From Treponema sp. (GTDB lineage: Bacteria > Spirochaetota > Spirochaetia > Treponematales > Treponemataceae): a DNA stretch of 64,000 nucleotides. Shown here piece after piece: positions 10,297 through 13,288 of this stretch. Each line of letters begins with the position of its first letter. The stretch's first letter is position 1. A program made the translations under genes and the position numbers. The stretch spans positions 26,094-90,093 of the forward strand of contig JAAVAO010000042.1 in the NCBI GenBank assembly GCA_014803985.1, in the 5' to 3' direction. The notes under the pieces were generated by a model. It was not told the DNA's origin. It saw nothing but the letters and a program-made list of their open reading frames with translations, and did not search any database.

Positions 10297-13288
10297 CTAA
10301 AACGCCCGCATTGCCCGAACAGAACAAGCGTAGTTTTTTATAGTGCTACTACGGCTAGAGTCAGTTGATCGGAGATTAACACAATACGCCAGATTAGCAA
10401 CCTCGCTCCATGAGGACCAGATGCTCTCTGAAGAAATAATACTGACACCTTTATATATCTTGTCCGCCTCGTTATTGTTCGGCAAGAACCACTCGCCAGC
10501 GTTCGTTGTGCTCGTGCTGTAATTCGCACATAACTTCGCCGCACAGTCTGCTGCCGTTGCACTTGCATGGTTCGGATGGTCAAGGATTGCCTGCGTGTTC
10601 GCATATCCCGCTCCGATGACGGATGAAGTTGTCACGTTACACCAGCCGCTGGATGTGCACGGACACCATACAGAGAGTCCAATCGTCTCTTTCGAGCATT
10701 CAAGGTAGTGGCAGGTCTTGTCGTTTACAGTGAAGCCATTCGAATCGTAATAGCACACCGCCCCGCCGCCCGGTCCCGTGTCGCGGAGCGCGTATTTTCT
10801 AATCAGCACGCCGTCCGCACCGTCAAGCGCGACCCTCCATTCCGTGCCGTCGGCTTGCGGCTTTACGGCGAATTTGCTGCAAATGCTGCCGTCTAGCGTC
10901 ACACCATCACCCGCTGTCAAAACCTGCCTGTTCGCCGTGTAAGCGGAAGGCGTTATCGTGGCGACAGGGGTTGCGGCGGTGAGATCGCCTGTAATGCTGA
11001 TTTTGGAAGTAGTGCCATTAAAAAAAATATCATTGCCATTTTCGACTTTTGCTGTGCCACTCATATTTAACTTGGAAGCAATGTCGAAGAACACGCCGTT
11101 GCCTCCATCTGTAGCATTGTTTCCACTGATCGTGCCGCCGTTCATTGTGATCGTGATAGAGGTACGAACAAAAATTCCGCCACCACAAGTCGCATTGCAT
11201 CCGCTGATAGTGCCGCCGTTCATTGTAAAATTGTTAGTTCCACCGTAAACTCCACCACCATAAGTCGCCGTATTTCCGCTTATCGTGCCGCCTTCCATCG
11301 TGAATGTATTTTCACTGCCTGTAACATAAACACCACCGCCGTACTTTGCCGTGCAGTCGCTGATTGTTCCGCCTTTCATCATGAACGCACCCCCACCAGA
11401 AACATAAACTCCGCCGCCATAGGAGCCCTCGGCTTTATTATTGCTGATTTCGCCGCCGCTCATTGTAAACGAACTTCCACTGTCAACGACGTAAACGCCG
11501 CCACCGTAATTGTTCGCATTGTTGCCACTGATTGTGCCACCGTTCATTGTGAACTCGCCTCTATAAACATAAACGCCGCCGCCAACTTGTGCATTGTTTT
11601 CGCTGATTGTGCCACCATCCATTGTAAACGTGCAAGATGAAGAGACGAAAACACCTCCTCCATAAGCCCCATTGCCTCCGCTGATAGTGCCGCTTTCCAT
11701 CTCAAATGTGCTGCTACTAATATAAACATTACCGCCGTATCTATACGCTGTATCTGCTAATATGTTTTCGCTGATTATTGCGGCACCTCTCATTGTAAAT
11801 TTGCTAGAAGAAACATAAATACCGCCACCGGAATTCTTATCATCAGCAGAAGCACCCCCAACTTTGTTTCTGCTGATTGTGCCGCCATCCATTATGACCG
11901 TATCACCATTACGAACATAAATTCCGCCGCCGCGATAACTCTTTGTAATGTTTTCTTCAACTTTGCAATTTTTCATATTAAGCGTGCCGCCAGAAACATA
12001 AATTCCTCCGCCAAACTCCCCCTCGCTTGAATTTCCACCCGTGATAGTGAGGTTTTCAAGCGTGAGGTTGAGCGTGCCGCTTGCAGGCCTTGCGTATATG
12101 ACGCGCTTTCCGATGCCCTCAACGGTGGCAGTGCCGTCGCTGTCAAGCCTTGCGCCCGCGTCGAGCGTTGCAGTGCCAGAAAGCGGCTTTATCGTGAGCG
12201 TGAGATTTTCGTCGAGTGCGGAGAAGTCCGCCATGCCGTTAGTGCCGATGTATGTGGTGTCCGTAGCGGTGAGTGTTCCGTCAACGTAAATCGTGTATGC
12301 GCTTGAGCCATCGTTTATGGCGATGATTTTGTCAATTGCCTTTTGAATTGTTGCGAGCGGCGAGAGAAAGCTTCCCAAATTGTCATCGTTCGCCGTGGCA
12401 CTGTCTTTGTAGTCCGAGCCATCGTACCAGCCGCCCGTGCCGCGAACGTACACCGTGGAAGAAATCATGCTTTGCGAAATTTCTTTTGCCGCGCCCTTTG
12501 CCAATCCGTCCCACGTGTCGGTACACAGTCCATTGAAAACGTTTATGTATTCAGAAAATACGCAGATGATTTCCTCGCTCTCACGAACTTTTTTCTTTAC
12601 GGTAAAAGTCACTTGATACGCGTCGGCGGGAATTCCACTTGCGCTGACTATGTATGTATCAGAAGTGTCTTCGTCTTTTTCACAATGAAAGTTCGTGTTA
12701 TTGATTTTAAGCGTACAATCATCAGGCACTTTTATTTTCAAGCTGACTGTGCCTTGTTCGCTGGACGAAAGCTCGATGGGCTCGCTCACATTGATTGCGT
12801 CGCCTTCTATTGCGCAGCCACCAATTTTTCCAGAAAGCAACGCGCCATTTCTGGAAAAATTGGTGGTGCTGTCTTCCGCCACAATATCCGATTTTATGAA
12901 CGCGAATACTTCCAGAGTGAAAGTGCCTCTCGTATCTTCTGGTCTTTGGAATGAAAAGACCAATTTTACATTGCCATCTTCGCCATTAGTTTGTGTTCCC
13001 GGCTCGAAATTTTCGTTTTCAGGGGATTCATCATGATAAAGTAGCGCGGCATACACAAGTTCGGGGATTGTCGGCATCGCATGGCGCGACGCTCCGTTTG
13101 AAACGCAGGCAGCAACAGTCAGCGAGCCGCCTTTATCTTCTGTTTCAAAATACTCATACCCCCCCCCCACTTGTAATTTCCTGCGTCTTTTCGGAGAGCG
13201 TGTCCGTGCACGAACAAAGGAGCGCAATCGCCGTCAGCGCAAGGGGAATAATCCTATATCTTAATGAAATCGCCTTTCTCTTTTGCAT
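10297..13288 (-). CDS. Large beta-helix surface lipoprotein, frameshifted at a poly-G tract (predicted phase-OFF); C-terminal C-type-lectin-like tail
   Basis: Signal peptide ORF from 13288 MQKRKAISLRYRIIPLALTAIALLCSCTDTLSEKTQEITSGGGV* ends just after G(10); the main ORF (to 10297) continues as GGGYEYFETEDKGG.. and contains many MNGGTISGNNA-type parallel beta-helix repeats. Confidence 0.85.
13159..13168 (-). repeat. Homopolymeric G(10) tract causing the frameshift; G(9) would restore the ORF
   Basis: + strand ten consecutive C; - strand AGT GGG GGG GGG GTA TGA versus AGT GGG GGG GGG TAT GAG with one G fewer. Confidence 0.92.

What the first reader, a model, noticed from the sequence alone, without database searches (positions are those of the whole stretch)
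10297..13288. Phase-variable beta-helix lipoprotein captured in the OFF state by a G(10) tract
The minus-strand reading from ATG 13288 gives a classic lipoprotein signal (MQKRKAISLRYRIIPLALTAIALLCSCTDT...) that runs into G(10) and stops two codons later (GTA TGA). Removing one G gives ...EITSGGGYEYFETEDKGG..., joining the signal peptide precisely to the ~970-aa beta-helix protein, which otherwise lacks any export signal. The called ORF start (MRSFVRARTRSPKRRRK) is just the out-of-frame reading of the signal-peptide DNA. Slipped-strand mispairing at homopolymers is a known ON/OFF mechanism, including poly-G tracts in treponemes.
Basis: partly seen in the sequence, partly recalled or inferred. 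Interest (0 to 1): 0.82.

Follow-up and report, generated by a model that had tools for sequence, protein, structure and literature searches.

The report
Poly-G on/off switch in Treponema lipoprotein
A run of ten Gs currently disconnects a surface protein from its export signal in an uncultured Treponema; other assemblies of the same gene show it connected, so this is a real genetic on/off switch, and one of about 87 such G runs in a genome that rivals the richest known switch collections.

Summary
Confirmed and supported. A G10 run (13159-13168, minus strand) separates a lipoprotein signal (ATG 13288) from an intact 953-aa beta-helix body; the signal's frame ends two codons after the run. Close copies in public assemblies occur in both phases. 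P0009 has the identical 40-residue leader joined in frame to a 95%-identical body. P0002 and P0003 are 100% identical over 903 residues but in opposite phase. Six paralogues in the same genome and eight loci in sister Treponema MAGs carry the run at the same place with 8-11 Gs; only one of these 14 intact loci, window included, is in frame. No constant frame offset exists, which argues against programmed frameshifting.

The switch belongs to a genome-wide repertoire: 87 runs of 8 or more G, peaking at 9-10, in lipoprotein leaders, promoter spacers, restriction-modification genes and surface-sugar enzymes. An unexplained regularity: 78% of the runs are followed directly by TA (background 4%), in this genus but barely outside it. 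The beta-helix core is also mosaic between alleles.

This is a new member of a known kind (poly-G contingency locus). Switching within one population, expression and surface location were not shown.

The parts
13358..13385 (-). candidate sigma-70-type promoter TTGCCA-16-TAAAAT
   Evidence: consensus scan, 10 of 12 matches; not above chance for the region
13295..13300 (-). ribosome-binding-site-like GGAGGA, 6 nt before the ATG
   Evidence: read from the sequence; GGAGRAA is kept upstream of the paralogues' start codons
13169..13288 (-). leader: lipoprotein signal peptide and short linker (40 codons, MQKRKAISLRYRIIPLALTAIALLCSCTDTLSEKTQEITS)
   Evidence: identical letter for letter in P0009, where it is joined to the body
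13159..13168 (-). G10 run: the switch; leader frame and body frame do not agree at this length
   Evidence: same position with 9, 10 or 11 G in paralogues and 8 or 9 G in sister genomes
13157..13158 (-). TA directly after the run (signature shared by 68 of 87 runs in the genome)
10297..13158 (-). body: N-terminal beta-rich domains, right-handed beta-helix core, C-terminal domain; 953 aa and stop
   Evidence: Pfam PF13229 E 2.1e-16; AlphaFold model with high-confidence repeated short strands over residues 350-750
974..3658 (-). second run-bearing lipoprotein gene in the window; G9 at 3525-3533 lies after its signal MRKTFTGIMVAVVFLLVTGCSS and is in frame

Best explanation
The locus is a translational phase-variation switch. 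The G run sits between the export signal and the mature part of a beta-helix lipoprotein. Gain or loss of Gs, most likely by slipped-strand mispairing during replication, changes whether the leader and body share a frame. In frame, a full-length lipoprotein is made and exported; out of frame, translation from the normal start ends two codons after the run and no exported protein is made. The sequenced genome was captured out of frame. Several paralogues carry their own run at the same place and can switch independently. Their beta-helix cores also differ between alleles, so the population can present changing subsets of a variable surface protein. Shown: anatomy, conservation of the run, length differences, both phases in nearly identical natural copies, mosaic cores. 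Inferred: slippage as the mutation, reversibility, surface exposure, adhesion or immune-evasion role.
For: Both phases in near-identical copies: P0002/P0003 100% identical over 903 aa with opposite phase, P0009 with the identical leader in frame. The run is kept at one position across 7 copies in this genome with 9, 10, 10, 10, 11, 11 and 9 Gs, the last in a decayed copy, and across 8 loci of two sister MAGs. Frame residues of 0, 1 and 2 all occur. Lengths peak at 9 and 10 (41 and 33 of 87), with almost nothing at 6-8; this is close to Campylobacter, where 53% are 9 and 26% are 10 (PMC6321876). Other run-bearing genes with high identity differ in run length between species: the mod gene G8 vs G9 at 90.6% identity, a kinase operon G10 vs G8 at 93.7%. 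In T. pallidum 76% of 17 poly-G runs tested varied in length (PMC7864442).
Against: No reads were available, so a single consensus length could hide mixtures or an error; this assembly contains N bases elsewhere. In-frame copies are fewer than one third: 1 of 14 intact loci, and 8 of 43 clusters reaching the run (p about 0.03 each), so not every length is equally likely or something else is selected. MutS and MutL genes are present, so the runs are not explained by lost mismatch repair. Lipoprotein signal peptidase was not searched for, and gut treponemes have been reported to lack it (PMC8049484).
Confidence: 0.92

Rival explanations
1. Programmed ribosomal frameshifting or RNA-polymerase slippage on the G run lets a fixed fraction of translation pass from leader to body, so the out-of-frame state is functional.
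For: The run is strongly conserved and most copies are out of frame; 9 of 14 family loci share the same frame residue.
Against: Residues 0, 1 and 2 all occur in one family, so no constant shift would serve. Identical bodies occur in opposite frames. Runs in promoter spacers cannot be explained this way.
Confidence: 0.04
2. Assembly or sequencing error in a homopolymer, or a decaying pseudogene.
For: Metagenome-type assembly, about 90% complete, with N bases. One family copy (C47) is truly decayed, with a stop just after the run.
Against: The body is stop-free over 953 codons and the leader is intact. Ten other clusters of close orthologues have the same out-of-frame arrangement while two are in frame. 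Run lengths of 9-11 recur at the same site in paralogues.
Confidence: 0.03
3. The out-of-frame state yields a second product from a start inside or near the run (GTG or TTG), so that the switch changes location (exported versus cytosolic) rather than on versus off.
For: Gene callers find GTG or TTG starts in the body frame.
Against: Many out-of-frame relatives have no start before residue ~28 of the body (27 clusters beginning MP/MG). No ribosome site was seen before the GTG, and a cytosolic beta-helix lipoprotein body has no evident role.
Confidence: 0.01

Closest known systems
Campylobacter poly-G/C phase-variable genes (phasome)
   Same: Poly-G runs with the same length peak at 9-10; mix of in-frame and out-of-frame genes; restriction-modification, glycan and surface genes included (length and number data: PMC6321876).
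   Different: Spirochaete; 87 runs against 18-39 phase-variable genes in most C. jejuni and 81 in the richest strain; many in lipoprotein leaders; strong TA after the run, which was not examined in Campylobacter here.
Treponema pallidum poly-G loci (tprE/G/J, tprL, tp0126)
   Same: Genus name, poly-G, length variation in vivo, promoter spacers affected (PMC7864442).
   Different: The described T. pallidum cases act on transcription; here the run is inside the reading frame between leader and mature protein. The named relatives of this protein are all uncultured Treponema/Treponemataceae assemblies.
Neisseria opa genes (from general knowledge)
   Same: Several paralogues, each with its own repeat in the leader region, switching by frame, with mosaic variable regions.
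   Different: Opa uses a pentamer repeat and an outer-membrane beta-barrel; here a mononucleotide run and a beta-helix lipoprotein.

Membership tests
Simple-sequence-repeat phase-variable (contingency) locus | Repeat tract inside the coding sequence whose length sets the downstream frame | tested here: met
Simple-sequence-repeat phase-variable (contingency) locus | Both phases found among close relatives, otherwise nearly identical | tested here: met
   P0002 vs P0003, P0009
Simple-sequence-repeat phase-variable (contingency) locus | Reversible high-frequency switching within one clonal population | not testable with these tools
   needs reads or cultures
T. pallidum-type poly-G promoter control | Run between -35 and -10 or just before the transcription start | tested here: not met
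   run is 120 nt inside the window gene's reading frame; nine other runs in this genome do lie between TTGACA and a -10-like box
Bacterial lipoprotein (signal peptidase II substrate) | Basic n-region, hydrophobic stretch, lipobox ending in Cys | tested here: met
   MQKRKAISLRYRIIPLALTAIALLCSC by inspection; no signal-peptide predictor run
Bacterial lipoprotein (signal peptidase II substrate) | Signal peptidase II gene in the genome; lipidation | not tested
Right-handed beta-helix protein (PF13229) | Pfam score over the curated cut-off | tested here: met
   60.4 bits against 25.9; model agrees
Opa-like leader-switch gene family | Several paralogues each with its own tract in or next to the leader | tested here: met
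   seven copies in the genome
Opa-like leader-switch gene family | Pentamer repeat and beta-barrel product | tested here: not met
   mononucleotide run; beta-helix

The most novel reading that the evidence does not exclude
Poly-G runs in this genus follow a rule not found in the literature searched: a run of 9-10 Gs followed directly by TA. The rule holds across unrelated genes, promoters and intergenic sites, so G-run plus TA may act as a mutational unit (made, kept or made unstable by a specific process) that seeds phase-variable switches around the genome.
Probability: 0.35. Interest if true: 0.8.

Novelty: new member of a known kind. Interest (0 to 1): 0.62.

Why it matters
It extends large-scale phase variation from well-studied pathogens to uncultured Treponema, with a repertoire (87, 103 and 76 runs of 8 or more G in three genomes) as large as the richest Campylobacter. 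It gives a concrete multi-copy, mosaic surface-lipoprotein family whose on/off state can be read from sequence alone, so existing metagenome reads could show in vivo switching. It also warns that automatic annotation of these genomes drops export signals from many surface proteins. The G-run-plus-TA rule offers a testable handle on how such runs arise and persist in bacteria that carry mismatch-repair genes.

Tried and rejected
Shared mobile repeat around the runs: flanks match essentially only between paralogues. Loss of mismatch repair: MutS is intact; MutL is full length, its low score coming from N-derived unknown residues. Constant programmed frameshift: residues 0, 1 and 2 all occur. TA explained only by -10 boxes or by stop codons: it holds equally in leaders, where the open frame reads TAT or TAC in this family, and in other classes. 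Comparison with tract-free orthologues of one run-bearing oxidoreductase showed only that the run sits in a length-variable loop, so the origin of TA was not resolved. PDB fold search of the model gave only weak, irrelevant antibody matches. A sequence profile matched only the solved structure Rhombotarget A. The sample origin of the sister MAGs was not found in papers. The automatic in-frame count missed the LCSC lipobox; the count used here (8 in frame, 35 out) was read from the termini printed.

Full report
Observation. The minus strand carries G10 at 13159-13168. An ATG at 13288, six bases after GGAGGA, opens a 40-codon leader with a basic start, a hydrophobic stretch and Cys (LLCSC). The leader runs into the Gs and stops at GTA TGA. 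The 953-residue body is open from 13158 to 10297 in another frame and has no export signal of its own. The longest ORF begins at TTG 13227 in the out-of-frame reading of the leader.

What the protein is. Pfam finds a right-handed beta-helix (PF13229, E 2.1e-16). An AlphaFold model (mean pLDDT 78, beta-helix core mostly above 90) shows beta-rich N-terminal domains, then a long run of short strands over residues 350-750; the C-terminal 160 residues are not modelled with confidence. The N-terminal 330 residues define a family of 110 protein clusters; all that carry a source name are from Treponema or Treponemataceae assemblies.

Both phases exist. Twelve clusters are 87-96% identical to the window protein over the N-terminal part. 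Two carry the leader in frame: P0009 (16 sequences), whose 40 leader residues are identical to the window's and whose body is 95% identical, and P0003. The other ten start inside the run (MGGGYEYFE, or MGGGSEYFE in P0008), the out-of-frame state of the window. P0002 and P0003 are 100% identical over 903 residues yet in opposite phase. This is the strongest evidence that the run length, not decay of the gene, sets the state.

The family. The window's genome (2.56 Mb, 56 contigs, 90% complete) holds seven copies with the run at the same place. Their lengths are 10 (window), 11, 10, 10, 11, 9 and 9; one is in frame, five are out of frame, and one is a decayed copy with a stop just after the run. 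Three of the copies lie at contig ends, as expected for near-identical 5' regions. Eight loci in two sister MAGs (CAMWWZ, CAMWTK; uncultured Treponema) have 8 or 9 Gs at the same place, all out of frame. The frame residue differs among copies (0, 1 and 2), so one constant frameshift cannot rescue them. Across protein clusters that reach the run, 8 of 43 are in frame, fewer than one third (p about 0.03); representative clusters are a biased sample, so this is a hint only.

Second layer. Between close orthologues the N-terminal part and most of the C-terminal part stay largely above 85% identity, while residues 350-750 (the beta-helix) fall to roughly 30-60% in seven of ten and stay at 98-100% in most blocks of the other three. 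The core is mosaic, as expected if it is exchanged by recombination. Two paralogues have a further run late in the gene that splits them from a second beta-helix segment; one sister locus has it too.

The genome-wide set. The genome has 87 runs of 8 or more G: 6, 41, 33, 5, 1 and 1 with 8, 9, 10, 11, 12 and 20 Gs. In the 342 kb around them there are only 20 G6 and 4 G7 runs, so the distribution is two-peaked. Same-genus relatives have 0-27 runs of 9 or more, this genome 81; the sister MAGs have 103 and 76 runs of 8 or more. Run-bearing genes include about 20 lipoprotein leaders (by hand reading, 8 in frame, 11 out, 1 decayed), hsdS with two runs, a type III-like DNA methylase, LicD, acyl-, glycosyl- and hexapeptide transferases, sugar enzymes, a LytTR regulator with its kinase, RodA (3' end), amylase-like and transglutaminase lipoproteins. 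Nine runs lie between TTGACA and a -10-like box at 19-21 nt spacing, longer than the usual 17. Orthologous runs differ in length between species at high flank identity.

The TA rule. 68 of 87 runs are followed directly by TA, against 4% for runs of 3-5 Gs in the same DNA; among single-copy loci 40 of 53 (p 6e-45). In the sister MAGs it is 83 of 103 and 44 of 76. In 23 same-genus genomes it is 84 of 147, in 16 genomes of other families of the order 38 of 307. It holds for promoter runs (8/9), leaders (15/20) and the rest (45/58). There is no repeat shared by the runs beyond paralogues. I have no tested explanation.

Mechanism. Slipped-strand mispairing is the established mutation at such runs and fits the length peak at 9-10 seen in Campylobacter (53% and 26%; PMC6321876) and the length variation of T. 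pallidum runs (PMC7864442). MutS and MutL are present. That in-frame cells display a lipoprotein at the surface is inferred; lipidation machinery was not checked, and gut treponemes are reported to lack signal peptidase II (PMC8049484).

Place among known systems. It is a poly-G contingency locus; the organisation (several paralogues, each switched at its leader, with mosaic cores) works like Neisseria opa but is not a member. It differs from the described T. pallidum poly-G loci, where the run acts on transcription. No paper found in the searched library describes such a repertoire in uncultured Treponema; that library lacks most subscription journals. Verdict: real, interpretation supported, new member of a known kind, with one unexplained regularity worth following.

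Noticed in passing
window 3525-3533 (minus), gene 974-3658: Second run in the window: G9 just after the signal peptide of an Ig-like lipoprotein, currently in frame.
   Followed up: partly
whole genome G000; L039-L109: 87 runs of 8 or more G, two-peaked length distribution at 9-10, far above most same-genus relatives.
   Followed up: yes
L039-L109, G040, G041 and relatives: G runs are followed directly by TA in 58-81% of cases in this and sister genomes, 57% in the genus, 12% outside it; unexplained.
   Followed up: partly
L063:5453, L076, L081, L084, L085, L095, L107 (two), L108: Runs between TTGACA and a -10-like box with 19-21 nt spacing, ahead of genes including an outer-membrane beta-barrel and an RHS-repeat protein: likely transcriptional switches.
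   Followed up: partly
L082:1502 and L082:2038: Type I restriction specificity gene (hsdS) with two runs, which could change DNA methylation targets.
   Followed up: partly
L059:1502 and L197: Type III-like DNA methylase with G8 here and G9 in a sister genome at 90.6% identity: possible phase-variable methylome.
   Followed up: partly
L075:1502, L063:1502, L064:1494: Runs at the very 3' ends of genes (RodA, an HD-domain response regulator, a histidine kinase), where they alter only the last residues or the junction to the next gene.
   Followed up: no
L042:3360, L094:4354, L114:4099: Second run late in beta-helix paralogues, splitting off a further beta-helix segment; conserved in a sister species.
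   Followed up: partly
window 10297-13158, body residues 350-750: Beta-helix core is mosaic between close orthologues (30-60% or 98-100% identity) with well-conserved flanks.
   Followed up: partly
L064 versus L182: Tandem repeated run-bearing genes behind a histidine kinase; run lengths differ between species at about 93% identity.
   Followed up: partly
L097, reverse-strand position 1494 (contig C44): A single G20 run, far outside the length peak and not followed by TA; possibly an assembly feature.
   Followed up: no
window 21378-22304 (plus): BspA-like leucine-rich-repeat lipoprotein with nearly identical tandem repeats.
   Followed up: no
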